Origin: Candidatus Bathyarchaeia archaeon
GTDB taxonomy: Archaea > Thermoproteota > Bathyarchaeia > 40CM-2-53-6
NCBI GenBank assembly: GCA_035935655.1
Contig: DASYWW010000024.1
Location: 1-64,000, forward strand
DNA: 64,000 nt
Direction of reading: 5' to 3'
The notes under the pieces: generated by a model
Told to the model about the DNA's origin: nothing
Databases searched by the model: none
Seen by the model: the letters and a program-made list of their open reading frames with translations, nothing else
In this document: positions 15,086 through 37,135 of the stretch, one piece after another
Layout: each line of letters begins with the position of its first letter
Numbering within the stretch: position 1 is the stretch's first letter
Program-made: the position numbers and the translations under genes

Positions 15086-15703
15086 CTAGTTAACGCTGAC
15101 CCTTGATGGCAGGACCTGCTCCACAATCTTGATCGATGAGGTAAGATCGTTTCTCTCCGCGATCAGAGGCCTAAGACTCGGCTCGATAGAGCCTTGTGCT
15201 AGCTTCAGAGAATCATCGTCAAGTTCTCCACTTTTGTGATCGAGTTTTGCGTTGACGAGATATTTTGTGAGACTTGTTATTTGTCCCGTTATCTCAGCGA
15301 GTCTCGACCTCATAGAGGAGACTAGGGAACTTGCTAGTTTGACCTTGTCCATATAGCCAGACTTCTGCGACTCGAGAAGCTCCGAATAAATCTCCCCATC
15401 GATCTCCTTCGAGTCTTTCAGGGATTCAAGTGCTCCGACCCTCTTCCTCAACAACGTTAGTTCGGAAATGATGTCCTCTGATTCCAGCTTCCACTCAGGC
15501 GATATGGTGATCGCCTTCGGGGTTAGAGCCATCTGCCGGGCTTTGGCTGTGAGAATAATTCCACCAGTAGCTTCTACCTGGACCCCTTCCATCTCACCAA
15601 ACGGGTTGCGCTCGATACCGATTACGCGTCCCAGTAGTCTGCCATAGATGTCTGAAACGCTTCGTCCTAGAAGCGCTTTCGTCTCGAGCTCAGGAGATAG
15701 CAT
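15086..15703 (-). CDS. cdvA: CdvA paralogue 2 (PRC-barrel + coiled coil)
   Basis: A 205-residue protein with an N-terminal PRC-barrel-like domain (LLGRSVSDIYGRLLGRVIGIERN) and then a long coiled coil from about residue 75 to the end. This is the layout of CdvA, which binds DNA/membrane and recruits ESCRT-III during archaeal division. It is shorter than CdvA1 (20007-20720) and lacks that protein's Pro/Gln-rich tail. It is the last gene of the nine-gene operon, 7 bp after cdvB3. Confidence 0.85.
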   Translation of the reverse strand: MLSPELETKALLGRSVSDIYGRLLGRVIGIERNPFGEMEGVQVEATGGIILTAKARQMALTPKAITISPEWKLESEDIISELTLLRKRVGALESLKDSKEIDGEIYSELLESQKSGYMDKVKLASSLVSSMRSRLAEITGQITSLTKYLVNAKLDHKSGELDDDSLKLAQGSIEPSLRPLIAERNDLTSSIKIVEQVLPSRVSVN

Positions 15704-15710
15704 CGAGATT

Positions 15711-16319
15711 CTACCTCACTCGATGAGCCGGATTCACGATCTGGGGAATCTCAGGGAATTTCTCTCTCATCTTCTGTTCAGCCATAAGATCCGCTTCCTT
15801 CAATATGTGAGCGGACTCATCATTAACCGGGATAGACATCCCATCTGAGTCGACAGCTTCACCAATTTCCATCGTCAGATTCTCTAACGAATCTTCGACG
15901 TCCCCAATGCCCGTTGAGATTTCAGGGAGTTTGCCCTCTAGCTCGCCTCTAACGGCGCCGAGGAGTCCTCTGACGGAGCCCATGCTGTGGACCATGTCGC
16001 CGAACTGCTCTACGGTCTCAAGACGAAGCAACGCCTGTTCGAGACAGATCTGGCTGCGGAGAGATGTCTTGATGAGCTTTCGAATTTGCACGCATTCGTT
16101 CGCGAAAACGGTCGCGGTCTGGGTGTCTCGGGCCTCAAGTGCCTTGGTGCACTTGTCCCGAAGCGTCTGGTCTCGCGATTCCATTTGGGCTATGCTTCGC
16201 TCCAGCCTTGTCGTCTGAGTGCGGAGCTTGTGCGTGGCGAACTGGATTCGTTGTTTCATCGGTGTGGGCTTGATAGCTTCTCGAATCCTATCGGTCAATG
16301 AGGGATTATCTCGAAACAT
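15711..16319 (-). CDS. cdvB: ESCRT-III (Snf7-type) protein, CdvB paralogue 3
   Basis: A 202-residue Snf7-family protein. A basic helical hairpin (MKQRIQFATHKLRTQTTRLERSIAQME) is followed by the conserved core (ANECVQIRKLIKTSLRSQICLEQALLRLETV). It ends with a Pro-containing MIM2-like motif (KFPEIPQI) that would bind the CdvC MIT domain. There is no C-terminal winged helix. ESCRT-III subunits polymerise to constrict membranes. It lies 2 bp after the ABC ATPase gene and 7 bp before cdvA2. Confidence 0.88.
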   Translation of the reverse strand: MFRDNPSLTDRIREAIKPTPMKQRIQFATHKLRTQTTRLERSIAQMESRDQTLRDKCTKALEARDTQTATVFANECVQIRKLIKTSLRSQICLEQALLRLETVEQFGDMVHSMGSVRGLLGAVRGELEGKLPEISTGIGDVEDSLENLTMEIGEAVDSDGMSIPVNDESAHILKEADLMAEQKMREKFPEIPQIVNPAHRVR

Positions 16320-16321
16320 GG

Positions 16322-17017
16322 TCAGTCTCCTATCATCCTGTTTTCTGGCGTGAGATGCAATGGTGGTCTAAGATGCACCTGGTGCTTGGCCTGGGATGCC
16401 TGACGAGGTAAGGCGGTCGTCATGAAGATCGTTGTTCCTTGGTTTCTGTTCAATCCCCTGAGAAGAGGAATCAACAGGTTTGTAGCAGAGCCATCCAAGT
16501 CACCTGTTGGCTCGTCGATTACCAGGAGCTCGGGTTTCACCGCGAGTGCTCTTGCGAGATCGATTCGCCTTCGTTGACCTGCACTCAGCCCGTCAGGGTA
16601 TGAACGTTCTATTTTGTCAAGTCCGAAGAAGGCGAGAGCTTCCTTTATCCTTTCATCTCGTTCTTTCCTGGGCACTCCTGCTAGCGATAAGGCTAGGTGC
16701 AGGTTTTGAGACACCGTCATTTGCGGAAGAGCTGTGGGACGCTGGAAAACGGCGGCTGTCTTCACCAAGGCACATCGCTTCACAAAAGACTCCCGTGTGA
16801 CGTCGTGTTCGCGGAACCTCACCTGGCCATGAATTGGCTTCTCCAATCCTAAGACAACATTGACGAGCGTCGATTTTCCCCACCCCGACCCGCCGAGAAT
16901 CGCGAGGAAGTCGCCCTGATCCACCTTCAAGGAAACGCCTTGATCGTAAAGACGCAGGGTGCCTCGGATGGACGGGTATTCAACTATTACCGATCTAGTC
17001 TCGATTACTGATGGCAT
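16322..17017 (-). CDS. ABC transporter ATPase (LolD/FtsE-like)
   Basis: A 231-residue ABC ATPase with Walker A GGSGWGKST near residue 42, a Q-loop (AVFQRPTALPQ), signature LSAGQRRRIDLARAL and Walker B LLVIDEPTGDLD. The usual switch-His position reads MTTALPR, so the H-loop histidine seems to be missing. The type resembles FtsE/MacB/LolD. It is embedded in the Cdv operon between the membrane protein (6 bp upstream) and cdvB3 (2 bp downstream), which suggests a link with division or membrane remodelling; this is inference. Confidence 0.92.
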   Translation of the reverse strand: MPSVIETRSVIVEYPSIRGTLRLYDQGVSLKVDQGDFLAILGGSGWGKSTLVNVVLGLEKPIHGQVRFREHDVTRESFVKRCALVKTAAVFQRPTALPQMTVSQNLHLALSLAGVPRKERDERIKEALAFFGLDKIERSYPDGLSAGQRRRIDLARALAVKPELLVIDEPTGDLDGSATNLLIPLLRGLNRNQGTTIFMTTALPRQASQAKHQVHLRPPLHLTPENRMIGD

Positions 17018-17023
17018 GCTTTG

Positions 17024-17491
17024 CTAGCTCTTGTAGTTCTCAACGAACGAGGAGGATCGGATTCTGCGAAGGCTCGAGAGTGAATAGAACAGGCCTCCCG
17101 CGAATGTTAGAACAGCTATTAGGACGATCAGTTCGAGTATCGAACTCGTTGTGAGGAATGCCTGGAGTAGTACGGGAGAGAATGCTACCAAAGCGACAAT
17201 CGCTCCCCTCAAGAAGTAACGTAGCAGGATTTGCCAGCCCGAGCCTCCGTACGCAAAGAGGGCCAGTTCCTCCTTCGTGCGTCGTGTGGTTGTCGAGACC
17301 GACGCTAGAGCACATGTAGGAGGAACAACTAGGAGAGAGAGCCAGATCCTTGAACCGAACGCTGGTGGACCTATTGTTGCGAGGGACGCCTCGATTCCTA
17401 CGATTCCCATTACCAGAATTGCGAGTAGGTCCGTGGCCTCGCGTGGGATCGCGCCGGATAGGACGATTGGGGTCCAGGATGGCTTTTCCAA
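17024..17491 (-). CDS. Membrane protein, probable permease partner of the ABC ATPase
   Basis: A 155-residue protein with about four hydrophobic segments (near residues 20-38, 47-66, 90-112 and 117-138). A cytoplasmic stretch (TKEELALFAYGGSGWQILLR) resembles the coupling region of FtsX/MacB permeases, in which the permease contacts the ATPase. At this size it would be half of a usual FtsX fold. It lies 6 bp before the ATPase gene and 14 bp after the Lrp gene. Confidence 0.75.
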   Translation of the reverse strand: MEKPSWTPIVLSGAIPREATDLLAILVMGIVGIEASLATIGPPAFGSRIWLSLLVVPPTCALASVSTTTRRTKEELALFAYGGSGWQILLRYFLRGAIVALVAFSPVLLQAFLTTSSILELIVLIAVLTFAGGLFYSLSSLRRIRSSSFVENYKS

Positions 17492-17505
17492 CCAACGCTG
17501 ACCTT

Positions 17506-17985
17506 CTATTCTGGGCCTGCCATTGACCGAAGGAACATTCCTAAGCGCCCTTCGTCGTAAGTCCTGATTACTGACGAGGCGAAGTCAATGTCAAGATGCA
17601 TTGAGCGGAGTTTGGATAGAACGGCGTTGACGTCCTCTTTGTTGCGGGCTACTATGAAGACGAGCCCTTCTGGAGTTCCTAGAGAGCTGATGACGTTGAG
17701 GGTCTCAGGAATTTCGCAAATCTGCTTGAGAATATCCTCTCTGGACGAGCTGCTGGGGAAGTTTGCTGCAACTATCACTTGTTCTGAAAGCCCGAGCTTT
17801 CCAAAATCGATGAGTGTCGTGTACTCACGGATTATGTGAGCATCTTCCAAACGGTTGACTCTGTAAGCGATGACGTTAGGATGGAGGGCGAGTTTGCGGC
17901 CTATCTCCACGTAGGACTGCTTTGAGTTCTCAACCAGTTCCGCGAGAATGCGCAGATCAGTTCCGTCAAGGTTCACTTCTTTCAT
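17506..17985 (-). CDS. Lrp/AsnC-family transcriptional regulator
   Basis: A 159-residue protein with an N-terminal winged helix (LDGTDLRILAELVENSKQSYVEIGRKLALHPNVIAYRVNRLE) and a C-terminal alpha/beta domain of the RAM/ligand-binding kind. It lies 3 bp from cdvC and inside the Cdv operon, so it may regulate this operon or the ABC genes. The effector is unknown. Confidence 0.85.
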   Translation of the reverse strand: MKEVNLDGTDLRILAELVENSKQSYVEIGRKLALHPNVIAYRVNRLEDAHIIREYTTLIDFGKLGLSEQVIVAANFPSSSSREDILKQICEIPETLNVISSLGTPEGLVFIVARNKEDVNAVLSKLRSMHLDIDFASSVIRTYDEGRLGMFLRSMAGPE

Positions 17986-17988
17986 CCT

Positions 17989-19137
17989 CTATGATGCCTT
18001 GAAGGATTCGTCCCAGTCGAAGTAGCGCTTGATGATGTTCTGGGAGACGCTTGGCCGTCGGCCCACGATGATGGTTTCGAAGTCTTCCATGGTGATTGGG
18101 TCCGGAATGGCGTTGAGGTCGTTGGCGGCGCCTCGCTGGAAGAAGTCTCGGACCACTTTGATCTGGGTGGACTGGAATAGATCGCGAATATCTCCTCCAG
18201 AGTAGCCTTCGGTCCTTCTTGCCAGTTCTGCGAAGTCGACGTTGTTCTGGAACTTCAGGTTCTGGGCGTAGATCTGGAACATATCCATGCGGGCTTTGAC
18301 GTCGGGGAGTGGGACGTAGATTCTCTTCTGGAAGCGTCTGATGAAGGGCTCGTCCAGGACCCATGGCTTGTTTGTCGCACCGATGAGGTAGACGTGGAGT
18401 TTCTTGTTTTTGTCGAGGATGCCGTCCATCTCTTTGAGGAACTGGTTTCTGACGCGGACTTCTCCGCCGACCTCTTCTCCCCGGACACCCATCAGAGAGT
18501 CTATTTCGTCGATGAAGACGATCGCGGGCTGCCCATTCTCAGAGACGTCTCTTGCCTTGGTGAATAATTGTGAGACGTTTCGCTCGGATTCTCCAAGCCA
18601 CTTCGACATCAACGACGCTGCGTCAGCGCAGAAGAACATCCCCTTGATCTCACTCGCGATTGCCGCAGCAAGAAGTGTTTTTCCGCAGCCGGGGGGTCCG
18701 AAGAAAAGTATTCCTCGAGGCCATCCGAGCGGGAAGAGGTCTGGTCTCCTGACTGGGAAGATTATGGATTCTTCGATCGCCCTTTTCGGCTTTTCCAGGT
18801 CTGCGATGTCACTCCAGCTGATGTCCGGCTTCTCTGTTAGGACCCACTGGTCAAGCTTGATCGTCTTGGAATCTCGGGTCTCATTCGAATCCATAGGATG
18901 AGCTATCGGCTCATCAGATTGGAGCTCCTGGATTCGTTTCTTGTAGGCCTCTACATGTTCGGTGTAGACTTTGTTTTGAGGAGCAGCTGGATAGAGGGAG
19001 CATAGTTTGAGAAGAACTTCGATAGCCCGTTGGTATTTTGTGGCGGCAAGCCGTTTGGAGCCTTTTCTCTCAAGCTCGATAGCTTCCTTCGCGTATCTTA
19101 CTGCCAGAGATTCGAGTTCTTCTGAGGCCGAGATCAC
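17989..19137 (-). CDS. cdvC: CdvC, Vps4-type AAA ATPase
   Basis: A 382-residue protein. An N-terminal MIT domain (residues 1-80, three helices including AVRYAKEAIELERKGSKRLAA) precedes one AAA module. That module has Walker A GPPGCGKTLLAAA near residue 148, Walker B IVFIDEIDSL near residue 205 and the arginine-finger region PFIRRFQKRIYVPLP. In Cdv systems this ATPase disassembles ESCRT-III polymers, gripping MIM2 motifs through MIT. It is the only cdvC in the window and serves at least three CdvB paralogues. Confidence 0.96.
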   Translation of the reverse strand: MISASEELESLAVRYAKEAIELERKGSKRLAATKYQRAIEVLLKLCSLYPAAPQNKVYTEHVEAYKKRIQELQSDEPIAHPMDSNETRDSKTIKLDQWVLTEKPDISWSDIADLEKPKRAIEESIIFPVRRPDLFPLGWPRGILFFGPPGCGKTLLAAAIASEIKGMFFCADAASLMSKWLGESERNVSQLFTKARDVSENGQPAIVFIDEIDSLMGVRGEEVGGEVRVRNQFLKEMDGILDKNKKLHVYLIGATNKPWVLDEPFIRRFQKRIYVPLPDVKARMDMFQIYAQNLKFQNNVDFAELARRTEGYSGGDIRDLFQSTQIKVVRDFFQRGAANDLNAIPDPITMEDFETIIVGRRPSVSQNIIKRYFDWDESFKAS

Positions 19138-19189
19138 TTGTCCCTCCTTGTAACACTGAAGGGCTTGGACGGGAGCACCTGTCTCCCGT

Positions 19190-19954
19190 CTAGTCCATGA
19201 CTATCTTTCCGTCATCCTTGAGCCGTTGTAGGGAACGCCTGATGTCGTCGCTTGGTACGAGGAGTTCTGCGGAGCAGCTGTTGAGGCTTAGCTCTCCATT
19301 GTGCGATTTGATGTAGTTTAGCAACCTGTCTTCTAGTGGAGCCTCTTCTGATCCATTCGTGGTGATGGCTATGGGAATTCTTTGTTCCGGTGCTCGGGTT
19401 GCGGCTTCGGGGACGGGTTGGCGGGTCTCTGGCATTGGCAGCTCTGGGAATCGTTCTTTCATTTGTTGGGATGCGATGGCGCTGGACTCTTCCAGTACTT
19501 TGCGTGCTTCAGTACTCGAAGCGCTCATGTCGAAGCCTTGATCTTCGCCGACTTGTCCGGTTTCCATGCTCATGTCGCTGAGCATGTTGTTTACTTCGCC
19601 AAGTTCGTTGGCGACTTCGGGGATGACGCCTGCGATTCTGCCCCGTGTCTCGCGTACGACTCCGATGACTGGTGCGATCTGAGCCATTATGTCGCCGAAT
19701 TCTTCGACCGTCTGCATTCGGAGGATAACGCGTTCGAGGGCTAGTTCGCTGCTGAGAGTAAGATGAGCCATTTTCCGAATCTCTGCGCACTCGTTGGCGT
19801 AGAGCGCCGCGTGGGCTGGGTCCTTCGAGAGTTGTGCGCCAATGCAACGCTGGAACATTTCCTTGTCGCGTTGCTGGAGCCTGGAGGACATGTGCTCCAG
19901 TTTCTCTTTCTGAGAGCCAAGCCGGAACAGGGCTTGCGCTATGCGCTCTTTCAA
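19190..19954 (-). CDS. cdvB: CdvB with C-terminal winged helix (ESCRT-III)
   Basis: A 254-residue Snf7-type core (residues 1-165) followed by an MIM2-like motif (RFPELPMPETRQPVPE) and a linker. The last 50 residues form a winged-helix domain (LEDRLLNYIKSHNGELSLNSC). In Sulfolobus CdvB this domain binds the CdvA tail and brings ESCRT-III to the division site. Of the three paralogues here only this one has it, so it is the likely CdvA-recruited subunit. It lies 52 bp before cdvC and 52 bp after cdvA1. Confidence 0.93.
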   Translation of the reverse strand: MKERIAQALFRLGSQKEKLEHMSSRLQQRDKEMFQRCIGAQLSKDPAHAALYANECAEIRKMAHLTLSSELALERVILRMQTVEEFGDIMAQIAPVIGVVRETRGRIAGVIPEVANELGEVNNMLSDMSMETGQVGEDQGFDMSASSTEARKVLEESSAIASQQMKERFPELPMPETRQPVPEAATRAPEQRIPIAITTNGSEEAPLEDRLLNYIKSHNGELSLNSCSAELLVPSDDIRRSLQRLKDDGKIVMD

Positions 19955-20006
19955 TGGAATAGGATGGACTTTCTCCTCAAACTTTCGGAACAGCCCTTGA
20001 ATCCTC

Positions 20007-20720
20007 CTAAGTCTCCCTCACGTGAAGTACTAGAACTGGATCTCTCGAGGGGGACGTTGTGGTTGCTGGTTGAGGGACTTGAGGAATGGGTTGTGGCTGT
20101 TGTGCAGCAGGCGGCCCTTGGGCCGAGTCGAGCTTCTGCAGATAACTGTAGATCGTCTCAACGTCCTTCTTCTCTGCCATCGCGCGAACCAGCCCGCTGT
20201 CAATGGCGTCGCTGGCTGCTTTGTAATTCATGTCATCGAACTCGCCGGAGGCGTGCAACATCTTGTTGCCCGCGAGGTGAGTCTGTAATTGCCGGAGTTG
20301 GGTGTTGAGGGTGCTGTTTCGCTGGCTGAGAGTGTCGATGATCTCCTTTCTCTTGCCCTTTAGTTCGTTGATCGCGTCTTCGTGCTGTTTCCTGAGATCT
20401 TCGTAGACATCTTTTTGGATGTCTCCGACACTGAACAGCTCGTCGAGGGCTCGTAGGCGTCGGGTCACGATGTCGAATTCTTTGCGAAATTCCTCAGCTT
20501 CGACCTTCCAAGCAGGTGCCAGGATGAGGGTATCGCCTGTTATGGCGACCCGGTCGCCGGGGCATTGGAGGAATTCTCCATTGCCGACCTCTATTCCTAC
20601 TCCGGTGATCTCGTCTCGGAGATTGGCTGATATGCCTACGACTTTGCCGAAGGCTCTGCCGTAGGGGTCTTGGAGGGTTCTGCCCAGGAATCTCCGGACT
20701 TGTTCAAGTGTTATCGGCAT
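20007..20720 (-). CDS. cdvA: CdvA paralogue 1 (PRC-barrel, coiled coil, Pro-rich tail)
   Basis: A 237-residue protein. The PRC-barrel-like N-domain (RRFLGRTLQDPYGRAFGKVVGI) and coiled coil (about residues 75-200) match CdvA. The tail is Pro/Gln-rich (AAQQPQPIPQVPQPATTT) and ends in a short hydrophobic peptide (DPVLVLHVRET), the sort of tail peptide that binds the CdvB winged helix. It lies between two cdvB genes. The pairing with CdvB at 19190-19954 is inferred from order and tail. Confidence 0.9.
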   Translation of the reverse strand: MPITLEQVRRFLGRTLQDPYGRAFGKVVGISANLRDEITGVGIEVGNGEFLQCPGDRVAITGDTLILAPAWKVEAEEFRKEFDIVTRRLRALDELFSVGDIQKDVYEDLRKQHEDAINELKGKRKEIIDTLSQRNSTLNTQLRQLQTHLAGNKMLHASGEFDDMNYKAASDAIDSGLVRAMAEKKDVETIYSYLQKLDSAQGPPAAQQPQPIPQVPQPATTTSPSRDPVLVLHVRET

Positions 20721-20756
20721 GATTTTGCACCCAAAAAAATGTTGTCGGAGTTACTC

Positions 20757-21461
20757 CTACCTTGGAATCACTGTCTCGTGTTCTGCGGTGGCGGTTGGAG
20801 AGGGTAACTCCGGGAACTTCTCACGCATCCGTGTCTCGGCTATGGTGTTGGCTTCTGAGATGATCTTTGATGCTTCTGGACCTGATGCTTCGAGGTCGTA
20901 ACCTTGGCCTGTTGCTTCGCCGACTTCCATGACTACGCTGTTTAGCGTGTCAGAGATCTCGCCTAGTTCGTATCCGACTTGTGGGATGACTCCTGCGATC
21001 TGGTTCTTGATCTGGTGTACAACTCCCGCTACTGGGCCCATCATTGCTGCGACGTCGCCGAATTCCTGGATTGTTTCGAGTCGTAGTACGACTTGTTCGA
21101 GTGCTAGTTCGCTTCTGAGTGTGACTTTGGCGATTTTCCGGATCTCCGCGATCTCGTTGGCGTACATTGCGCTTCTCATTGTATCTTTGGACATCTGGGC
21201 TTGAACGCACTTGTCGAAGAGTGACTTGTCGTGTTGCTGTGTTTTGAGATTGGCCCCTTCGAGCCTGTTCTGTTGTACTTTGAGTTTGTAGACGACTTGT
21301 GAGATCTTTTCTTTGAGTGGTTCTTGGTGGTGGATGCGATCGGTGACCTTCGAGAGTAAGGGTTCCCTTTGCTCTCGGTCCCAATTCTTCATGGACTTGT
21401 ATGACATTTCGATCTTGAAATCTGGTGTACTTGGGACAGGTTCCAAGTGGGTTCTTGACAC
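20757..21461 (-). CDS. cdvB: ESCRT-III (Snf7-type) protein, CdvB paralogue 2
   Basis: A 234-residue Snf7-type protein with a basic hairpin (KEKISQVVYKLKVQQNRLEGA), the core (ANEIAEIRKIAKVTLRSELALEQVVLRLETI) and a terminal MIM2-like motif (KFPELPSP). It has no winged helix. It is the first gene of the operon. The 5' start is uncertain: an in-frame ATG at 21407 (MSYKSMKNW) would drop 18 residues that are not family-like. Confidence 0.9.
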   Translation of the reverse strand: MSRTHLEPVPSTPDFKIEMSYKSMKNWDREQREPLLSKVTDRIHHQEPLKEKISQVVYKLKVQQNRLEGANLKTQQHDKSLFDKCVQAQMSKDTMRSAMYANEIAEIRKIAKVTLRSELALEQVVLRLETIQEFGDVAAMMGPVAGVVHQIKNQIAGVIPQVGYELGEISDTLNSVVMEVGEATGQGYDLEASGPEASKIISEANTIAETRMREKFPELPSPTATAEHETVIPR

Positions 21462-26764: not shown

Positions 26765-26908
26765 TGGCGCCGCCGAGAGGGTTCGAACCTCTGACCAACG
26801 GGTTGCTACAGTGGACCTTCCACCTTAACAGCTTCAGCCTCAGCCCTATGCCGAGTCCGCTGCTCTACCACTGAGCTCGCGCCCCCAAACATCTGAGGGA
26901 ACGGCGGC
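26765..26908 (-). tRNA. tRNA-Asn(GTT) interrupted by several insertions (probable introns)
   Basis: The 3' part is a perfect T-arm (AGAGG-TTCGAAC-CCTCT, 26776-26792), acceptor strand CGGCGGC (26769-26775), G and an encoded CCA (26765-26767). The matching 5' acceptor GCCGCCG is at 26902-26908. It is followed by T, a 23-nt insertion (26878-26900), then A-GCTC-AGTGGTA-GAGC. Removing the insertion gives the standard archaeal tRNA-Asn start. The anticodon heptamer CTGTTAA is at 26825-26831, but stems GCGGA (26856-26860) and TCCAC (26811-26815) lie apart, implying about 33 nt of intron. A 13-nt insertion sits in the variable loop. Exact splice sites are not resolved. Confidence 0.75.
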
Positions 26909-27219
26909 CCGCGTCTATAGCCGGCGGCAACCGACAACCCGACAGGACCCCGTTTATTAAAAGATAGGCAGGAGCACCATCAAGGGACAACGCCGTCCAA
27001 CGCGATCAATACTCGTACCGAAACAAGGCAAGACTACAGCGCCCCCAGACTGTGATGAGAACTCCTTCGACTCAAACCCAGTTAGACCGCACAACGGGAC
27101 CAAATGAAATAAGGAAAGTCCCGATGAGCGTCTGAACCGTGTTATTGGTGATAGCATGCCGATGCCCATCGCTCCATTCTCACTGGGGAGGTCGATGACG
27201 ACATGGGCAATTCAAGGAG
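26909..27219. other. Gene-free stretch
   Basis: About 310 bp between the tRNA-Asn and a small membrane-protein gene. I see no convincing protein; a 70-codon minus-strand frame (26957-27169) has composition unlike the neighbouring genes. A further GCCGCCG occurs at 26922-26928 on the minus strand, but it lacks a following tRNA D-arm. Confidence 0.4.
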
Positions 27220-27513: not shown

Positions 27514-27630
27514 GGGCCCGTAGCTCAGCTAGGTTTTCTTCAGGTTGAAGAACTGAAAGAGCGGCAGGCTCATAGCCCTGAAGTTCGGGAAACCTGACGG
27601 TCCCCGGTTCGAATCCGGGCGGGCCCACCA
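27514..27630 (+). tRNA. tRNA with CAT anticodon (Ile2 or elongator Met) with introns
   Basis: Acceptor GGGCCCG (27514-27520) pairs with CGGGCCC (27620-27626), followed by A and an encoded CCA. The T-arm is CCCGG-TTCGAAT-CCGGG. The D-loop holds an extra 23 nt (about 27535-27557) containing the hairpin TTCTTC/GAAGAA; removing it leaves GCTCAGCTAGGTAGAGC. A second insertion of about 17 nt follows the anticodon loop CTCATA. The GGGCCCG acceptor is typical of archaeal tRNA-Ile, so Ile2 (modified CAT) is favoured over Met. Its 3' end serves as the integration site. Confidence 0.85.
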
Positions 27631-27655: not shown

Positions 27656-29143
27656 TCAAGAATTTGAGAGCTCCTTGAGTTTCGCCAGAATGTACTCAGC
27701 GTACAGCTTTTCTTCGCTAGGCTCAGAGATGGCTACGATCCGGTGTGGTTCTGAAAACGCTGCCTTGACTTTGCTAGTGTCGAATCCGAGGGATTGAGCA
27801 AAGTTTTCCAAGATTTCGAGTCTGGTTTGGGGGGTCTTTGGTCGTAAACTGAATCCTGCTTTTGCGTATTCGTTCCTCATGTATTCGACGCCTTTGCTTT
27901 GCACTTGATGATACGTGTCGGTAACGTGGCCCATCGTATATTGAATTAGCGACATAGGCATTCTAGCGTACTCCATGTTCACTGCATAGACCTTTCTCAG
28001 AGTGTGTGGTCTCAAGGTGTAGTGAAGATGCCCAGGTTTTATGGGCCTCAGAAGACCAGCTCTTGCAATTGCAGAATGAACTAGTTTGTAGAGCTGCTTT
28101 TCGCCGATGGGCTGTGGTTTCATTCTGTTGAGACCTCGGACACGATCGTTCAGCTCGTCCCGGATCAGTGGCGAATCGTCGTCGATTTGTTCGGGTCCCA
28201 TATGCGGGTGCAACAAGCCGCCCTTCTTTCTAGCTTCGATGTATTGCCGGCAGTAGTACTCCGCTTCGTGTGAAAAGAACGCGTCGTATGGGGCGTACTT
28301 TCCTTTGGTTATGTCCTCGTTCACATGTACATGGATTATCGGATTCTTGGCTTCGTAGTCACGCTTGATATGACCGTACTTGAGCCGCACAAGTGTGCCT
28401 TCCCTCATTCCACTCAAGCACAGGACGCTAATGACGAATTTCTCTCGCAGCGTCGCATAGTCCAACATGCGAAGAATGTCTTCCACTGATGGTGAGGCAT
28501 CTTCGTAGATTGGGTTTGGCTTCCTCAGGGGGATGCGTGGTAGCTCGACTGCGTTTACGTTGTAGAACATTCTGATTTGTTTTTGGTAGCCGCTGATTCG
28601 TCCGGGGGCTCTTCCTTGTTCTTGCATTTCCTCGAGGCATGTTGCGAGGAACTTTCTGTGCTTTTCGATTCTCAGAGGGTTCGGCAGTCCCGTGGGCTTC
28701 ACGTCTGCAATTAGTTGGTCGGGCGTAGCGCCGACTCGAGTTGAGTACATGAGAACGGTGTTGACGGTGTGGTAGAGCGTCTGTTGGCTACCCGATCTAA
28801 CTCGAAGGAGGTGTCGCGCCATCTGAATTAAGGACTCGTTCTCAAGCACAAAAGGAAGAAGCTTTGGCCCTGTCGATAGAAACGTGTCGAGGACATATTG
28901 CACCAAGTCTGTCTGCTTCAGATTCAGCACCTTGGTTGTCTCGACAGTAATCGGCGTCTTCAGTCTGTAATTCTTGGGGCTACGTTCAAGTCGAATCGAC
29001 TCACCAACAAACGTTCCGTAGGACGTCAGGAAAGAAAGCTCGTCTAAGCGCAGTTCTCTCGGTCTGAGTAGGAGCTCTGTCGTCACTTGGTTTCCCAGCA
29101 GTATTTGTGTTGGCACGTATTTTCCAAATGTGTCGTTACACAA
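27656..29143 (-). CDS. int: Tyrosine recombinase / integrase
   Basis: A 495-residue integrase. All catalytic residues can be placed: Arg in LSGMREGTLVRLKYGHI (near 243), Lys in DITKGKYAPYDAFF (near 276), His-Arg in LRPHTLRKVYA (near 371), His in TMGHVTDTYHQ and the nucleophile Tyr in GVEYMRNEYAKAG. The gene is whole, unlike SSV-type integrases split by their own att site. The start is TTG, right beside a 14-bp inverted repeat. Its stop TGA lies 25 bp from attL; in the excised circle the next gene would be polB. Confidence 0.95.
   Translation of the reverse strand: MCNDTFGKYVPTQILLGNQVTTELLLRPRELRLDELSFLTSYGTFVGESIRLERSPKNYRLKTPITVETTKVLNLKQTDLVQYVLDTFLSTGPKLLPFVLENESLIQMARHLLRVRSGSQQTLYHTVNTVLMYSTRVGATPDQLIADVKPTGLPNPLRIEKHRKFLATCLEEMQEQGRAPGRISGYQKQIRMFYNVNAVELPRIPLRKPNPIYEDASPSVEDILRMLDYATLREKFVISVLCLSGMREGTLVRLKYGHIKRDYEAKNPIIHVHVNEDITKGKYAPYDAFFSHEAEYYCRQYIEARKKGGLLHPHMGPEQIDDDSPLIRDELNDRVRGLNRMKPQPIGEKQLYKLVHSAIARAGLLRPIKPGHLHYTLRPHTLRKVYAVNMEYARMPMSLIQYTMGHVTDTYHQVQSKGVEYMRNEYAKAGFSLRPKTPQTRLEILENFAQSLGFDTSKVKAAFSEPHRIVAISEPSEEKLYAEYILAKLKELSNS
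29129..29142. promoter_or_regulatory. Inverted repeat, probable operator
   Basis: TGTGTCGTTACACA has perfect 5-bp arms around CGTT. It abuts the integrase start codon (29143, minus strand) and lies 7 bp before the TATA box of the divergent RHH gene. A repressor bound here could control both int and its own gene. The function is inferred from position. Confidence 0.5.
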
Positions 29144-29148
29144 TCACG

Positions 29149-29156
29149 CATATAAG
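29149..29156 (+). promoter_or_regulatory. TATA box of the RHH regulator gene
   Basis: CATATAAG is centred about 27 bases before the ATG at 29180, predicting a leaderless transcript that starts at or next to the start codon. Confidence 0.6.
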
Positions 29157-29179
29157 GATAGTCTTGACCAACCAAATGC

Positions 29180-29335
29180 ATGGGCAGGCTAGATGTACTC
29201 ATCGCCGACGAGCTGGAGCGCGAATTTAGAATCCGAGTTGCCGAAAGGCTAGGCGGCACCCGAGGCGCTATCTCGAAGGCCGTCGCCGAAGCAATCAAAC
29301 TCTGGATGCGAGACGAGCCCAAAAGAAAGAAATGA
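29180..29335 (+). CDS. Ribbon-helix-helix regulator (51 aa)
   Basis: A short frame: MGRLDVLIADELEREFRIRV, then AERLGGTRGAISKAVAEAIK, then LWMRDEPKRKK. The strand-helix-helix order, the G-x-x-GAISKAV turn and the charged helix are typical of the CopG-like proteins common in archaeal plasmids and viruses. It is divergent from int with a shared operator-like inverted repeat, so it is a likely regulator of integration/excision. Confidence 0.85.
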   Translation: MGRLDVLIADELEREFRIRVAERLGGTRGAISKAVAEAIKLWMRDEPKRKK

Positions 29336-29338
29336 CGC

Positions 29339-29653
29339 TTATCCAAGACATTCCAACTCCAAGATTGCTGATCTGACGATGGTCATCCCATAAGGCGTGA
29401 ATCTCGATTTGACGGGAAATGTCTCCCGATCCGCAAATCGTTCCCAATCCAGCCTAACGGCATCCTTTGATGCGAAAGATAACCAACCAACAGTCTCGAG
29501 AATGGGGGGAGTGTTGAACCTTGAAGGGTCATCATCGCAATAGACTTGGTGATCGGCATACCTTATCCGGACCAAGCTCCCTAGCTTCAGACTCCCGTGT
29601 CTGACTGTGACCGGGCATCTCGAAGGCGGCGAACACGGGACTTCCTCGGTCAT
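29339..29653 (-). CDS. Hypothetical 104-aa protein
   Basis: A strand-rich soluble protein (GSLVRIRYADHQVYCDDDPSRF). Its C-terminus (SRFTPYGMTIVRSAILELE) could be a short wing or helix. No family was recognised. Its start overlaps the 3' end of the MCM-like gene by 4 bp, so translation is probably coupled. Confidence 0.65.
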   Translation of the reverse strand: MTEEVPCSPPSRCPVTVRHGSLKLGSLVRIRYADHQVYCDDDPSRFNTPPILETVGWLSFASKDAVRLDWERFADRETFPVKSRFTPYGMTIVRSAILELECLG

Positions 29654-32223
29654 TTCCTGCCCTCGTCTGTTGGTTGTTTTTCATGGCATTCTTGACAGCG
29701 TAGGAACGCGTCGCATCCAGCCCTCACCGGGCCAAGCTTTCCGCATACGGAGCAGTTCTCTGTGGCGACAAACGGAGGCCATAGACCGGGCTCTGGGACG
29801 GTTGCCGATTGCGCGGTTTTCGAGTCTAGGTTCAGAGAGCGGTTTGGATCTCCCTGTAGGATCTCTGGGCTCAGGTTCGGCTGATGCGGCGCTTGTTCAA
29901 CAACTTTCTCCTTCGCTACCGTGTGGTCAGCAGTTTCAGGTGGAGGAGGGTGGGGTGGATGTCTGGTATCGATGCTATGGATTCGGCCGGGCGACGGCTC
30001 GTAGATCAGCCCGTATTTTTTCAGCCGATCAAGTTTTTCCTCTCGATCTGCCAAAGTCCACTTACTCAACTGTGCATCTTCCGAGGCAAGGATCTTCTCA
30101 CGGTCCGCAAAGCCGTCCTCGGACTCGAGCTCCTCGATCTTGCGTAGAGTAAGCTTGTCAAGGTGATTTTCGGCAGGGTTACCACGAGCTAGTTGGGCCT
30201 GGATGGCCAATGGCCCTCCGCTGCTTGCCTGTGACTCGTCCTTCGTCCTCTTGTGGAACGTGTTGCCCTTTGGAGAGAGGCGCACCCCCGGCCTGCGGGG
30301 CTGGGCTTCTATTAGCCCCAAGGCTTTGAGTCGATTGGTCTTGTCAATCGTGTTTCGTTTGCTTCTCTCGAGCAGTTTTGATGCAAGTACTCCTGTTGTG
30401 ATGCCCGGATGGTCACGAATTTCCTCGTACGCTCTCCGAAGCGATAGATCAGCGGCGAACTCTTCCTTGATGGACTGCACTTCTTCATCCGAAAGCTCCG
30501 CGACTTTCTCCAGCCGCCTGACGAGGGCAGGATATTCCCAGCGCTCAAGATTTTCCTCGATGAACGCTAGGGCCTCCTTGACGTGCTGTTCCGTGACGTG
30601 AACTTTCCCGTCGTCTGCAACGTTATGTCTGAGGACGGCGAAAGCAGCGGAAATCCGCTCTATGGTTTCCATGAATCCGTTGTGGACCAGAGGGATTCTG
30701 GGAGTCGAAACCTCCATCAAGCGGGGAAACTCGCCCCGAGTCGCCGCAGTGGTGTTGGGGTCGAGGATCACGTCGTCGGGCTTCAGGTTAAGCGTCCAGT
30801 ACACGTGCTTTTGAAGGACATCAACAGGAATAGCGGGAGGACTGACGGTGGCATTAGCGATGAGGTCTGCCGGTACATCTTCGGTAACAAATGGAATGAT
30901 GAGATCAAACCTTGTCAGTTCGACTTGAGGGTCGGTCATGCTTGCGATGTCAAGCAGGGCCTCAGCTCGATCCGTGTACCCATCTCGCATAGCTTTACGG
31001 GGATTGGCGGCGGCTAGGATACGGTCACGGGCCCAAGCCTCCCCACCCACCTTCTTTGTGACAACCACCTTCCAGCTTCTCAACACCTCCCTCAGCTGAG
31101 GCAGCTCCTCAGGCGGGAAGCCTTGCATCCCGTCTAAGTAGGCAATCGTCCCATCCGCTAGCACCAAGGTTCCCCACCGAATCAGATCGTGTTCAGGATC
31201 GACTGAGTACGAAATTCCTGCTCTGCTAGCAGATTCTCCAACTGCCTTCTCGCCGATCTTGAGTTTGTCGTGGCACCACTCCATGATGGCGCTCTTGCCG
31301 TTCGTGCTGTCCCCAACGTATAGAGTGATTATTCCGCCTCGGATTATGCGTCCATCAACTCTAAGCCACAATGGGCTGTGAAGAGTGAGCGCAGCTGCAA
31401 GTTTGGCATCTCCGCGACCAACAATGTAGGGGGCAATAGTTCTGTCGAGATCCTCGCGAAGATTGGGATTGTTCTGAAAATATCTCCTGAAGTTCGCTTT
31501 GTCGACTTCCGATGGCTTGTAACTCTCAAAACTAAGCTCGATTGGTTGCACTTTGTAGACGAATAGGGTCAGATTTCTTTTCTCGTCATCCGTCACAATG
31601 CCTGTCAGTTCCACCCTTCGTGAGGAGGGCAAGTCTCCACAGTTGATGAATCGTACGAGGACTGGCCGGAAGGCCTCTTCTTTGTAGAGCACTTCCCCCG
31701 GTAACTGTCTAATCGAAACTTCAACGTAATTGATACGTGGAGAGTCTTTCACCGGCTGGAGAGTCTTGGACCGCTTTTGGAAGAGCGCATGGCGGAGTGT
31801 CTGATAGTTCGCCTTCTCAGAGATATCTACCCATTCTGCTTTGCTGGTCTCGTCCTCGCTGTTCTCCGTCCGTACCTCGTACTGTTTAGGTATGTTCTTG
31901 GCGTCACCCTGCCCTGCGATCTGGACCCGGACGCGGACCTCTAGGCCATAATTTTCCGCTTTGAGTGCAAGCGGTAGGGTAAGGAGTGGAGGCGACAGAA
32001 GAAATACGAAGACGGATTTCTTGAACAAATTGGCCAATGAAGCCTTTCGGGCAGCATCTCCCTGGCCAGCCTCGCCAACCTCAGGGTTTGTAGTTGCGAG
32101 AAGTTCTACGTCTTCATGGGTAAGCTGCACGATCAAGTCTTGAGACACCCACTCGGGGAGCTTTGTTTCTCGTCTCTCGGTCAGGGAGTAGAACCGAGAA
32201 CGTCGGCTTGTCACAGGCTGCAC
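29650..32223 (-). CDS. MCM-like replicative helicase, divergent
   Basis: 857 residues. The AAA core is MCM-like: DRTIAPYIVGRGDAKLAAAL, Walker A GDSTNGKSAIMEW near residue 307, and Walker B region TLVLADGTIAYLDGMQGF. An ELTRFDLIIPF segment (arginine-finger region) follows near residue 440. The Walker B acidic pair reads DG instead of DE. A helical winged-type region is near residues 580-650. A C-terminal zinc finger (CSVCGKLG ... CQECHEKQP) replaces the usual end. The N-terminal 270 residues are not recognisably the MCM N-domain. It likely opens the origin of this element. Confidence 0.82.
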   Translation of the reverse strand: MQPVTSRRSRFYSLTERRETKLPEWVSQDLIVQLTHEDVELLATTNPEVGEAGQGDAARKASLANLFKKSVFVFLLSPPLLTLPLALKAENYGLEVRVRVQIAGQGDAKNIPKQYEVRTENSEDETSKAEWVDISEKANYQTLRHALFQKRSKTLQPVKDSPRINYVEVSIRQLPGEVLYKEEAFRPVLVRFINCGDLPSSRRVELTGIVTDDEKRNLTLFVYKVQPIELSFESYKPSEVDKANFRRYFQNNPNLREDLDRTIAPYIVGRGDAKLAAALTLHSPLWLRVDGRIIRGGIITLYVGDSTNGKSAIMEWCHDKLKIGEKAVGESASRAGISYSVDPEHDLIRWGTLVLADGTIAYLDGMQGFPPEELPQLREVLRSWKVVVTKKVGGEAWARDRILAAANPRKAMRDGYTDRAEALLDIASMTDPQVELTRFDLIIPFVTEDVPADLIANATVSPPAIPVDVLQKHVYWTLNLKPDDVILDPNTTAATRGEFPRLMEVSTPRIPLVHNGFMETIERISAAFAVLRHNVADDGKVHVTEQHVKEALAFIEENLERWEYPALVRRLEKVAELSDEEVQSIKEEFAADLSLRRAYEEIRDHPGITTGVLASKLLERSKRNTIDKTNRLKALGLIEAQPRRPGVRLSPKGNTFHKRTKDESQASSGGPLAIQAQLARGNPAENHLDKLTLRKIEELESEDGFADREKILASEDAQLSKWTLADREEKLDRLKKYGLIYEPSPGRIHSIDTRHPPHPPPPETADHTVAKEKVVEQAPHQPNLSPEILQGDPNRSLNLDSKTAQSATVPEPGLWPPFVATENCSVCGKLGPVRAGCDAFLRCQECHEKQPTDEGRK

Positions 32224-34224: not shown

Positions 34225-35745
34225 TTACTGACTCCCGGAGACTCGGTGATTTTTCTTTCTTACCGCTACGAAGCGGTTCGCTTTAATCCTCCCCAAGAGA
34301 ACGGATGCTGGCTCATCTTTCGGATCTTGAACAAGCAGTTTGCCGCGGAATGCATTGGATAACATGGATCGTTCAAACATGGCGGCGCGATTATGCCCAG
34401 TCGAAACTGCGCGTCTTGCCTCTTCAAGAGTGCTAAATTGCTCCCCGATCTTTGTGAGAATTCGGTTCATTTCTTCGAAAGGAGGAAGGGGAACGGGAAT
34501 GGAACGCAGCATCTCAAGATTGATGTTGTATTGGCCGGCGGTGCTCCTCGTTTTGCTCTCTATCGTCTTGCGACCGATGAATGAAGCCAGAACCAGGTTT
34601 AGGTATGCTGGGAGTACTTCAGAAATCGCTGGTCGAAGTCTAATGAGGTATGACGCGAAGAGAAATGTATCATCGAGTCTGTCCACCACTGCTGACTTTC
34701 CTACGAGGTCCAAGCTGCCGTTGGTCCTGCAAACCAACAAGTCGCCTCGCTCTAGTCGAAGACGCCCGATTTCATCACCATCGAATTTTGAATATTTCAG
34801 ATCTCGAAAATCTAGGATGCCCTTGACTATGTTTGGAATCCTGAGGACTGGCGTCCCTCCCGAATCATTGTTACATTTCCTAGAAGTTCCATATCCCGCA
34901 TCGTAAATTAGGGCACCAATGTTTGTCCAAGCCCACCCTCCCGGCAAGGTGGGAAGGGCTTCCGTTTCAGTGGTTTCCGGTCGCTTGTTTTCGTGTCTTC
35001 TGAGTTCTTTCTCTTCTGCTCGAACGGAGCTATTCCATCTCTTCCGTTGCTCCTCTCCGATTCTCTTCAGAAAAAAAGACGCAGGTTCATCGACCGGGTT
35101 CCGTTCTGTCAACTTTCCGGTTATGGCTCCGGCCAAGAAAGTTTGACGCAATCTGGCGAGGAGCTGCGGAACTTTCTCAAGTGATGTCTTGGCGATGAGA
35201 TTTATTCTCCTCAGCTCTCTAAGATGCGAAACGATTCTCATTTGTTCATGCAAAGGAGCGATAGGAATGGGTGCTGAAAGTAGGGTCTTCCTTTCTACTG
35301 TTGCCTGGTTGACCCATTGCTTGCAACGGCTTTCGAAATATCCTTCTCGCCAGATTGTTGCTAGCCAACACCAAATCCACTCCGGAGGAACACTACTTTC
35401 CGGAATTCTCAGTCGAGTAAGGTGATTGCTGAACGCGTATGGTCCATCTGTCCTGTCAAACATCGCCGTTTTGCCGACAAGTTTCTGGCTGTTTGTGTGA
35501 CAAAACAAGACGTCCCCGGGCTTCAGAATATAAGCCGCTTTAGCCAGCTCTCTTGGAACCGTTCGAACAGAGGAAAGGTCCAATGTGCACTCGGAACTAA
35601 TGTTGTTCATTCTTAGATGCTTAATTCCACCAGGCACATTCTTCTTTCCTGATGCAAATCCAGGCTGAGCGTCAACTATTGAATCTTGAACAGTGGCCCA
35701 GACCCAACTCTCGGGAATGGGAAACAGTGGTTCACTCACGTTCAC
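34225..35745 (-). CDS. hsdS: Type I restriction enzyme specificity subunit HsdS
   Basis: A 506-residue protein with two target-recognition domains, each starting with the family pattern (ESWVWATVQDSIVD near residue 12 and GGWAWTNIGALIYDAGYG near residue 270). Each is followed by conserved helices (RIVSHLRELRRINLIAKTSLEKV; RILTKIGEQFSTLEEARRAV). It sets the DNA target for the HsdR/HsdM complex. Its start overlaps the hsdM end by 14 bp. The length is slightly above the usual 400-460. Confidence 0.95.
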   Translation of the reverse strand: MNVSEPLFPIPESWVWATVQDSIVDAQPGFASGKKNVPGGIKHLRMNNISSECTLDLSSVRTVPRELAKAAYILKPGDVLFCHTNSQKLVGKTAMFDRTDGPYAFSNHLTRLRIPESSVPPEWIWCWLATIWREGYFESRCKQWVNQATVERKTLLSAPIPIAPLHEQMRIVSHLRELRRINLIAKTSLEKVPQLLARLRQTFLAGAITGKLTERNPVDEPASFFLKRIGEEQRKRWNSSVRAEEKELRRHENKRPETTETEALPTLPGGWAWTNIGALIYDAGYGTSRKCNNDSGGTPVLRIPNIVKGILDFRDLKYSKFDGDEIGRLRLERGDLLVCRTNGSLDLVGKSAVVDRLDDTFLFASYLIRLRPAISEVLPAYLNLVLASFIGRKTIESKTRSTAGQYNINLEMLRSIPVPLPPFEEMNRILTKIGEQFSTLEEARRAVSTGHNRAAMFERSMLSNAFRGKLLVQDPKDEPASVLLGRIKANRFVAVRKKNHRVSGSQ

Positions 35746-37135
35746 TCCATCGTTTATCGTTTGTCAGCAAGAGAGAGATCTCGTTTAATGCGTCGGTGGC
35801 CGTCTCAACTTGCGAAAGGGCTTCGGCCAAAAGTTCCTCAGGTTGACCGATTCCTTCCTCGCCTTGAGAGGATTCCTCCTTCAGCCAGAAAATGTCGAGA
35901 TTATCATCTCGCTTAGCAATTTCCTCTCTCCCAAACCTGCGAAAACGTTCCGTTTCTTTGCGAGACCCCTGATTGTAACACTTTTCAAAATCTGCAAAGT
36001 ACTTCGAAGTCAGTGGATTGCGAATAGCAACCTTTTCGATGCTTGTCCTACTATCATAGATCCAAGTCTCTCGCGTAGGTTCACCCTTGACAAAGAAAAT
36101 GATGTTTGCTTTTACGCCTGTGGAGTACGGGGTGAAAGTTCCGATCGGCAGTCGCAAAATCGTATGTAGACTGCAATCTTCCATCAGCAGCTTTCGAATC
36201 TCCTTCCCCGCGTTCTCCTCAAACAGCACGTTATCAGGAATAACCATGGCGGCTCTCCCTCCTAGCCTCAGTATAGTCATTACGTGCTGGACGAAATTCA
36301 GCTGCTTGTTTGATGTCCTGACTGTAAAATCTGATCGAATTGGTGCCTGACCTGCCCCCTTCGTGCCGAATGGCGGATTAGTCATTACGACATCATAGCG
36401 TTTGGATGTTTGAGGTCCCTCCTCAAGAGAGTCTCCGTCGTAGACATCCGCCTGAATCTCATGCAGGTAGAGGTTCATCAGACCCAACCGTCTAGTGCCC
36501 AGAACAATTTCTCCACCTGAGAACGTCCTATTCTGCAGTCTGTCCCTTTCCTCCCGAGACAGCAGAGCTCCTTCTTTTGTCTCTCTTAGAGTCCATTCGT
36601 AAGCTCCAATCAAGAAGCCCGCGGTTCCCAGCGCCGGGTCATGAATGGTGAAGTTTGGCTTTTCACGGAAGTCTGGCCTCATACATCGGACAACGCTTCG
36701 AATAGCCTCGCGAGGAGTGAAATATTGACCGGCCCCTTTTTCCTCTTCCGCGTACTTTTGGAGCAGTCCTTCGTATGCTTGTGCCTTGATGTCAACGTCG
36801 ATTGCAGTCCACTGTGTTTCGTCTATCAAATTGATGAGTTTCTTCAGATTGACAGGTTCTCGAAATTTTGAAAGCGAGCCGGCGAATATGTCCTCAAGAG
36901 GACCCTTCTGTCTTGAGAGTGTTCTCAAGATTTCCGAGTAGGCGTCCTGAAGGTCAGTCCCAGAGTTTACTCGGAGATCAGTCCAAGAACATCCTCGGGC
37001 AAGCTTGACGTCTTTCTCCTGAGCAATTTTGAGAAACAGTAGATAAGTGAGCTGTTCAATGTAGTCGCCGTATCCCATCCCATCGTGGCGAAGTGTGTGA
37101 CAGAATCCCCATAACCTGTTTACAACTTCGCTCAT
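35732..37135 (-). CDS. hsdM: Type I restriction enzyme methyltransferase subunit HsdM
   Basis: A 467-residue N6-adenine methyltransferase. An N-terminal HsdM helical domain is followed by the SAM-binding DPALGTAGFLIGAYEW near residue 178 and the catalytic NPPFG near residue 265. The gene lies between hsdR (4-bp overlap) and hsdS (14-bp overlap), giving a compact operon in the order hsdR-hsdM-hsdS. All motifs look intact, so the enzyme is predicted to be active. Confidence 0.97.
   Translation of the reverse strand: MSEVVNRLWGFCHTLRHDGMGYGDYIEQLTYLLFLKIAQEKDVKLARGCSWTDLRVNSGTDLQDAYSEILRTLSRQKGPLEDIFAGSLSKFREPVNLKKLINLIDETQWTAIDVDIKAQAYEGLLQKYAEEEKGAGQYFTPREAIRSVVRCMRPDFREKPNFTIHDPALGTAGFLIGAYEWTLRETKEGALLSREERDRLQNRTFSGGEIVLGTRRLGLMNLYLHEIQADVYDGDSLEEGPQTSKRYDVVMTNPPFGTKGAGQAPIRSDFTVRTSNKQLNFVQHVMTILRLGGRAAMVIPDNVLFEENAGKEIRKLLMEDCSLHTILRLPIGTFTPYSTGVKANIIFFVKGEPTRETWIYDSRTSIEKVAIRNPLTSKYFADFEKCYNQGSRKETERFRRFGREEIAKRDDNLDIFWLKEESSQGEEGIGQPEELLAEALSQVETATDALNEISLLLTNDKRWSERE

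What the first reader, a model, noticed from the sequence alone, without database searches (positions are those of the whole stretch)
26765..26908. tRNA-Asn gene apparently broken by four insertions, one between positions 8 and 9
Both acceptor strands, D-arm, T-arm and CTGTTAA heptamer can be found, but they are separated by 23 nt (after position 8), about 33 nt around the anticodon and 13 nt in the variable loop. Multiple non-canonical introns are known in some Thermoproteales tRNAs; this many in one gene would be unusual.
Basis: partly seen in the sequence, partly recalled or inferred. Interest (0 to 1): 0.72.

Follow-up and report, generated by a model that had tools for sequence, protein, structure and literature searches.

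The report
Intron-broken tRNA with surrogate acceptor strand
The only asparagine tRNA gene of a soil archaeon is broken by three small introns, one so close to its start that it takes hold of half of the acceptor stem, and in related genes such introns come with a leader sequence that matches the tRNA's own 3' end and probably stands in for the missing strand until splicing.

Summary
The gene is real: a single-copy tRNA-Asn(GUU), window 26908-26765 (-), in an unnamed Bathyarchaeia-like genome. It has three bulge-helix-bulge (BHB) introns, not four: 8/9 (23 nt), 30/31 (24 nt) and 37/38 (22 nt). The 13-nt variable-loop insertion is a misparse. Removing the introns gives a standard tRNA-Asn; 0 of 300 shuffles score as well.

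The surprise lies outside the reported coordinates. The BHB of the 8/9 intron uses the 5' acceptor strand. Thirteen nt upstream of the gene is a second strand complementary to the tRNA's own 3' end (26929-26922). Such an element (7-11 contiguous pairs) is present in 44 of 44 distinct tRNA-Asn genes with an 8/9 intron and 1 of 31 without. tRNA-Cys, -Lys and -Phe genes with 8/9 or 9/10 introns carry one matched to their own 3' end (17/17, 20/20, 4/4). It mostly sits 28-34 nt after a TATA-like box, about the transcript's start.

I propose a surrogate acceptor strand that holds the 3' strand so that the true 5' strand can form the splice motif. Against: tRNA-Phe keeps it in 8 of 9 genes without the intron; tRNA-Ser has an 8/9 intron without it; folding predicts no release after splicing.

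The parts
26955..26961 (-). TATA-like box (TTTAATA), 32 nt before the element
   Evidence: motif match only, no transcript data
26922..26929 (-). leader element TGCCGCCG: proposed surrogate acceptor strand, complementary to positions 66-73 of the same tRNA (one G.U pair, at G73)
26909..26921 (-). 13-nt linker between the element and G1 (3-25 nt among the 44 Asn genes)
26901..26908 (-). exon 1, positions 1-8 (5' acceptor strand GCCGCCG + U8)
26878..26900 (-). intron 1, 23 nt at 8/9; BHB central helix CGCC (26906-26903) / GGCG (26883-26880), bulges GT|T and CG|A
26857..26877 (-). exon 2, positions 9-30 (D-arm and first part of the anticodon stem)
26833..26856 (-). intron 2, 24 nt at 30/31; central helix CAGC/GCTG, bulges GG|A and AA|G
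26826..26832 (-). exon 3, positions 31-37 (G31, CTGTTA; anticodon GTT)
26804..26825 (-). intron 3, 22 nt at canonical 37/38; central helix CTGT/GTAG, bulges TA|A and CA|A
26765..26803 (-). exon 4, positions 38-76 (anticodon stem 3' side, T-arm, 3' acceptor strand, G73, encoded CCA)

Best explanation
It is the organism's functional tRNA-Asn(GUU) gene, with three BHB introns at 8/9, 30/31 and 37/38 that a two-subunit splicing endonuclease would remove. The 8/9 intron can form its BHB only if the 5' acceptor strand (positions 3-6) pairs with the intron and not with the 3' acceptor strand. The transcript therefore begins with a surrogate strand complementary to the 3' acceptor strand (in relatives also to G73 and CCA). 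In the unspliced precursor the surrogate holds the 3' strand in a stand-in acceptor helix, the true 5' strand is free to form the splice motif, and RNase P has no true acceptor stem to act on. After the intron is excised and the exons are ligated, the true 5' strand replaces the surrogate and RNase P removes the leader. Shown from sequence: the gene, its introns, the element, its complementarity, its co-occurrence with acceptor-proximal introns and its place after a TATA-like box. Computed only: that the element moves the 5' strand from acceptor stem to intron. Inferred: the function, the order of processing and the final exchange.
For: Introns: solver score 31.5 against 0 of 300 shuffles; 3'-half found once in G000; two endonuclease subunits. 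Element: 44 of 44 distinct Asn genes with the 8/9 intron, 1 of 31 without; 21 of 21 genomes found by an intron-only pattern among 398 of the phylum, 2 of them outside the class. Other tRNAs, each against its own 3' end: Cys 17/17 with the intron, 1/6 without (that one 40 nt away with G.U pairs); Lys 20/20 and 0/5; Phe 4/4 with the intron. Within-family contrasts agree: Asn in f12, f14 and f9, Cys in f2. Leaders fit their own 3' end best in all four. Opposite G the element has C or T (G.U kept) in all but 1 cell. Box-to-element distance is 28-34 nt in 74 of the 85 intron-bearing genes, while the element-to-gene gap is 0-25 nt. Folding at 25 C, window gene: P(acceptor stem) 0.00004 with the element, 0.98 without; expected pairs of the 5' strand with the intron region 6.7 and 0.16. 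Cys, Lys and Phe: P(acceptor) 0.00-0.01 with, 0.89-0.99 without.
Against: 8 of 9 Phe genes without an 8/9 intron keep a matched element. tRNA-Ser(UGA) of G000 has a good 8/9 intron and no matched element, as do its close orthologues by eye. The model still prefers the surrogate after splicing (mean P(acceptor) 0.01), so exchange needs tertiary contacts, RNase P or another factor. The exact BHB stays improbable (0.08 with, 0.01 without); 9 of 44 Asn genes gain no more than 0.5 kcal/mol from the element and 11 of 44 gain no 5'-strand pairing with the intron region. Scrambled elements lowered the BHB cost partly too (8.0, against 6.95 intact and 10.1 deleted). The window leader alone is not significant against its own shuffles (p 0.09). 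Many genes are close relatives, so counts are not independent. No RNA data were seen.
Confidence: 0.68

Rival explanations
1. Processing checkpoint: the element's main job is to mask the 3' acceptor and CCA end, delaying RNase P, 3' processing or charging until splicing is done, and freeing the 5' strand is a side effect.
For: In many relatives the element also pairs with G73, C74, C75 or A76 (7 of 20 Lys genes pair all four and 13 pair three; 9 of 44 Asn genes pair all four). Leader pairing with RCCA that extends the acceptor stem is reported to inhibit E. coli RNase P (PMC9433436, abstract and passages). It would also explain a Phe element without an 8/9 intron.
Against: In the window gene pairing stops at G73, and 16 of 17 Cys genes pair only 66-72. 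Most tRNAs of this genome with introns elsewhere show no such element.
Confidence: 0.25
2. The upstream copy is the real 5' acceptor strand, and the linker plus second copy are part of one longer intron.
For: The copy is nearly identical to the 5' strand and lies at the predicted transcript start.
Against: The downstream copy is always followed by T (position 8), which the search patterns require, but the upstream copy is usually followed by other bases. In L163, L165-L166 and L286-L290 the upstream copy lacks the partner of position 66, while the downstream copy is intact. In Lys the element is GGCGGGTTCG or similar, not the 5' strand.
Confidence: 0.05
3. Relic: the element is a leftover of a duplication linked to intron insertion and has no function.
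For: Phe keeps it in 8 of 9 genes without the intron, as a relic of intron loss would.
Against: It recurs in four tRNAs and many families, extends to match G73 and CCA, drifts mainly by G.U-keeping changes and holds a fixed distance to the TATA-like box while the linker varies.
Confidence: 0.1
4. The gene is a tRNA pseudogene broken by insertions.
For: Standard finders miss it.
Against: It is the only tRNA-Asn 3' half in the genome, its exons restore a complete tRNA, and its congeners conserve the arrangement.
Confidence: 0.02

Closest known systems
Multi-intron tRNA genes of Thermoproteales (Pyrobaculum and relatives)
   Same: BHB introns at canonical and non-canonical positions, several per gene, heteromeric endonuclease (PMC4090602 and PMC8450103, passages).
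   Different: Passages seen give at most three introns per gene; three congeners here have four by the solver. Positions listed in PMC4090602 do not name 8/9, though the list ends in 'etc.' and 3/4 is mentioned. No leader strand complementary to the 3' end is described in the passages I saw.
Split (trans-spliced) tRNAs of Nanoarchaeum and Caldivirga
   Same: A leader sequence base-pairs to bring tRNA parts together for BHB cleavage (PMC4033280 and PMC4090602, passages).
   Different: Here there is one collinear gene; the leader pairs with the 3' acceptor strand of the same tRNA, not with another half's trailer, and is not itself at a splice site.
Permuted tRNAs of Thermofilum and red algae
   Same: Unusual distance between promoter and gene; BHB processing (PMC3218864, passages).
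   Different: Order of the halves is normal here.
Leader-RCCA pairing in bacterial RNase P substrates
   Same: Leader bases pair with the tRNA 3' end (PMC9433436, passages).
   Different: There it extends the true acceptor stem by a few pairs; here a whole stand-in strand of 7-11 pairs replaces the 5' strand.

Membership tests
archaeal BHB tRNA introns | 4-bp central helix between two 3-nt bulges at each intron | tested here: met
   all three introns of the window gene; in several relatives the 8/9 central helix has one mismatch, GACG
archaeal BHB tRNA introns | removal restores a standard tRNA | tested here: met
   72-nt tRNA-Asn plus encoded CCA, score 31.5; 0 of 300 shuffles
archaeal BHB tRNA introns | matching splicing endonuclease in the genome | tested here: met
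   two PF01974 genes over cut-off; one keeps and one lacks the recalled catalytic histidine by eye, not tested further
archaeal BHB tRNA introns | introns excised in the cell | not testable with these tools
   no RNA data
split tRNA | halves encoded at separate loci and joined in trans | tested here: not met
   all exons lie in order within 144 bases
permuted tRNA | 3' half upstream of 5' half | tested here: not met
   normal order
surrogate acceptor strand (proposed here) | leader strand complementary to the gene's own 3' end, found with 8/9 or 9/10 introns | tested here: met
   exceptions Phe and Ser
surrogate acceptor strand (proposed here) | needed for splicing and later displaced | tested here: inconclusive
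   folding supports the first step for most genes; displacement is not predicted

The most novel reading that the evidence does not exclude
A new kind of cis-acting RNA element: a leader-encoded stand-in acceptor strand that lets archaeal tRNAs carry introns which take hold of the 5' acceptor strand, by switching the 3' strand between a surrogate helix before splicing and the true acceptor stem after it. It arose or was kept in at least four tRNAs and several families of Bathyarchaeia-like and related archaea.
Probability: 0.55. Interest if true: 0.88.

Novelty: new variant of a known kind. Interest (0 to 1): 0.78.

Why it matters
It suggests how an intron can live inside the part of a tRNA that must pair to make the acceptor stem, which could explain how introns spread beyond the anticodon loop. 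It also gives a concrete, testable RNA switch: element, 5' strand and 3' strand can be mutated in compensating ways. In practice it offers a signature for finding tRNA genes that standard finders miss; here ARAGORN reported none in the window and Rfam fell short at this gene.

Tried and rejected
Rejected: a variable-loop intron of 13 nt (explained by the 37/38 intron); exon boundary GCGGA|CTGTTAA (BHB and stem pairing favour 30/31); a pseudogene; the upstream copy as true 5' exon.

Led nowhere or against: no matched leader element in tRNA-Ser(UGA); the absolute BHB probability stayed low in folding; exchange after splicing was not predicted; the Lys intron pattern over 398 genomes found only 5 genomes, all in families already seen. 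My solver failed or gave implausible parses for several tRNAs of G000 (for example Asp L206, Cys L201, Ile L011 -) and for L116, L117, L120 and L047, so I do not give a total intron count for the genome.

Rows dropped before counts: leaders shorter than 20 nt (with intron) or shorter than 40 nt or holding N within 40 nt (without intron), duplicates, and genes whose 3' part did not fit the search expression. The Asn expression was narrower and gave 41 of 41 and 1 of 10; I quote. Genes left out but with intron and element visible: L185, L284, L291; L358 (Lys) was fetched after and has it too. In one search the Cys control with score 24.6 (L235, 40 nt away) counts as a hit. In one search scrambles that kept complementarity were dropped (mean 6.4 of 12 kept per gene).

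Papers: passages of PMC4033280, PMC3293823, PMC4090602, PMC3218864, PMC8450103, PMC12918454 and PMC9433436; all others in search listings only. No paper in these listings or passages describes such an element; that is no proof of absence, since subscription papers, supplements and figures were not searched.

Recalled, not from a call: tRNA numbering and identity features (G73 of Asn, U8), the archaeal TATA-to-start distance, the catalytic triad of the endonuclease, RtcB as ligase, and the names of Cdv proteins and type I restriction genes below.

Full report
What the window holds. On the minus strand, 26908-26765 encodes a tRNA-Asn. ARAGORN reports no tRNA in the window and Rfam RF00005 finds the D-arm to T-arm part here just below threshold (28.2 bits, cut-off 29).

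How many introns. I wrote a solver that lists BHB candidates, removes sets of up to four and scores the product as a tRNA. Its best answer has introns of 23 nt at 8/9, 24 nt at 30/31 and 22 nt at 37/38 and scores 31.5; the next answer scores 28.3. With the acceptor strands and T-arm kept and the interior shuffled, 0 of 300 shuffles reach 31.5 (best 27.4). Each of the three has a 4-bp central helix and 3-nt bulges. The spliced product is GCCGCCGU-A-GCUC-AGUGGUA-GAGC-A-GCGGG-CUGUUAA-CCCGU-UGGUC-AGAGG-UUCGAAC-CCUCU-CGGCGGC-G with CCA encoded. Relatives that lack the 37/38 intron read CTGTTAACCCGTTGG straight through. So there are three introns, and the variable-loop insertion does not exist.

Is it the working gene. 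The genome (2.5 Mb, 65 contigs, 95.8% complete) gives one match to the tRNA-Asn 3' half, this gene. The same pattern, at up to 1 mismatch, matches 32 of 41 genomes of the relatives' set (the own genome included), in 30 of them once and in 2 twice. In one of those two, G026, the second match has a changed acceptor end and looks like another tRNA; the two matches of G013 both read as Asn 3' halves. Two endonuclease subunits are present. The nearest named matches of a window protein are soil 'Bathyarchaeota' metagenome assemblies (97-99% identity); the genome itself is unnamed to me.

The intron-bearing tRNA set. Of 36 tRNA genes of G000 that the solver parsed, most show one to three introns; several parses are poor, so this is a rough picture. 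In congeners a further intron sits in the T-stem at 50/51: L113, L124 and L127 are solved with four introns. The passages I saw give three as the maximum.

The upstream element. Comparing 8/9-intron genes showed a second GCCGCCG-like strand upstream. In the window it is TGCCGCCG at 26929-26922, 13 nt before G1, and pairs with positions 66-73. In other families it is GGCGCCGCC, GGTGCCGCTG, GGCGCCGTTG and so on, with pairing that reaches C75 or A76. It is therefore better described as a strand complementary to the 3' end than as a copy of the 5' end.

Co-occurrence. Scoring the best contiguous pairing between the 60 nt before G1 and positions 66-75, all 44 distinct Asn genes with an 8/9 intron have 7-10 pairs; of 31 without, one (L182, 28 nt away) reaches 7 G-C pairs. 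Shuffled leaders of intron-bearing genes reach the level of the weakest of these in about 2% (score 20 or more). A pattern that asks only for the intron found 21 of 398 genomes drawn across the phylum, two of them outside the class (G276, G454); all 21 have an element of 8-11 pairs. Within-family contrasts go the same way: f12 (genus g32 with, g24-g26 without), f14 (L163, L165, L166 with, L162 without), f9 (L292 with, L180 and L181 without; L182, also f9 and without the intron, is the exception above), and Cys in f2 (L231 with, L232 without). These are few independent events; the raw counts include many close relatives.

Other tRNAs. In G000 the tRNAs with the strongest leader-to-3'-end pairing against shuffles are Phe, Lys and Cys. 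Their orthologues: Cys with an 8/9 intron 17 of 17, without 1 of 6; Lys with a 9/10 intron 20 of 20, without 0 of 5; Phe with an 8/9 intron 4 of 4, but without it 8 of 9. The Lys element, (T)GGCGGGTTCG or (T)GGCGGGCTTG, pairs with CGGGCCCGCC(A). Leaders of each group fit their own 3' end best (means 24.4, 21.0, 25.5 and 21 on the diagonal; the highest off-diagonal value is 20.1, Cys leaders against Phe).

Constraint and position. Over positions 66-72 of the 85 genes, cells opposite G hold C 234 times, T 43 times and A once; opposite C they hold G 299 times and other bases 13 times, and opposite T they hold A 4 times (the alignment was chosen by best pairing, which favours pairs). A TATA-like box starts 28-34 nt before the element in 74 of 85 genes; no such box was found for the other 11, including all 4 Phe genes. 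The gap from element to G1 is 0-25 nt. By the usual archaeal spacing (recalled) the transcript would start at or just before the element.

Folding. With ViennaRNA at 25 C, the 44 unspliced Asn transcripts give mean P(acceptor stem) 0.00 and P(surrogate helix) 0.97; without the element P(acceptor) is 0.71. Forcing the 8/9 BHB costs 6.95 kcal/mol with and 10.1 without the element; 35 of 44 genes gain more than 0.5 kcal/mol. For the window gene P(acceptor) goes from 0.98 to 0.00004 when the element is present, and expected pairs of the 5' strand with the intron region from 0.16 to 6.7. Cys, Lys and Phe behave likewise in all 41 genes tested. Results against: the full BHB remains improbable (0.08); in several genes (for example L163, L165, L286, L287, L289, L294) the element changes nothing because the intron hairpin already occupies the 5' strand; scrambled elements help partly; and after splicing the surrogate is still preferred (P(acceptor) 0.01). 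The same holds for Phe genes without the intron, which presumably still make tRNA, so the model probably overstates the block; that is inference.

Mechanism proposed. The element at the start of the transcript pairs with the 3' acceptor strand; the 5' strand forms the BHB with the intron; endonuclease and ligase remove the intron; the 5' strand, now joined to A9, replaces the surrogate; RNase P cuts at G1. A bacterial RNase P is reported to unwind leader-RCCA pairs in its precatalytic complex (PMC9433436, passages), so an RNase P-assisted exchange is conceivable; for archaea this is inference.

What does not fit. tRNA-Ser(UGA) has an 8/9 intron with a perfect central helix but no matched element; its leader has a different conserved stretch. 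The Phe element outlives the intron, or precedes it. The element may thus have a wider role, such as masking the 3' end.

Standing. The gene belongs to the known kind of multi-intron archaeal tRNAs. The surrogate strand is, as far as my searches show (and the passages), not described; searches covered open-access full texts only.

Noticed in passing
window 27514-27627 (+): tRNA-Met (CAT) with an insertion in the D-loop and probably another after the anticodon; the solver parsed only the D-loop one (22 nt).
   Followed up: partly
window 27656-32223 (-): Right after the tRNA-Met 3' end lie an integrase-family gene (PF00589) and an MCM-domain gene (PF00493), so an integrated element may use this tRNA; no second copy of the tRNA 3' end was found in the window.
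   Followed up: partly
window 34225-39849 (-): Genes that by eye resemble a type I restriction-modification set (recalled likeness, no family search).
   Followed up: no
window 15086-21461 (-): Run of several paralogous genes around a Vps4-like ATPase (17989-19137), by eye like archaeal cell-division (Cdv/ESCRT) genes; the ATPase was used to find named relatives.
   Followed up: no
L325-L340 and L343, upstream of tRNA-Ser(UGA): Ser genes with an 8/9 intron share a conserved leader stretch (about GACCTGAANGCGGGTT) that by eye could pair with the start of the D-loop intron (AACCYGC); not tested.
   Followed up: no
L195, L244-L246, L251-L255: tRNA-Phe genes keep a matched upstream element although they lack the 8/9 intron that congeners L247-L249 and L256 have.
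   Followed up: partly
L113, L124, L127: tRNA-Asn genes solved with four introns (8/9, 30/31, 37/38, 50/51), one more than the maximum in the passages I saw.
   Followed up: yes
L206 (G000 contig 62): tRNA-Asp-like gene whose acceptor-proximal part my solver could not parse convincingly.
   Followed up: no
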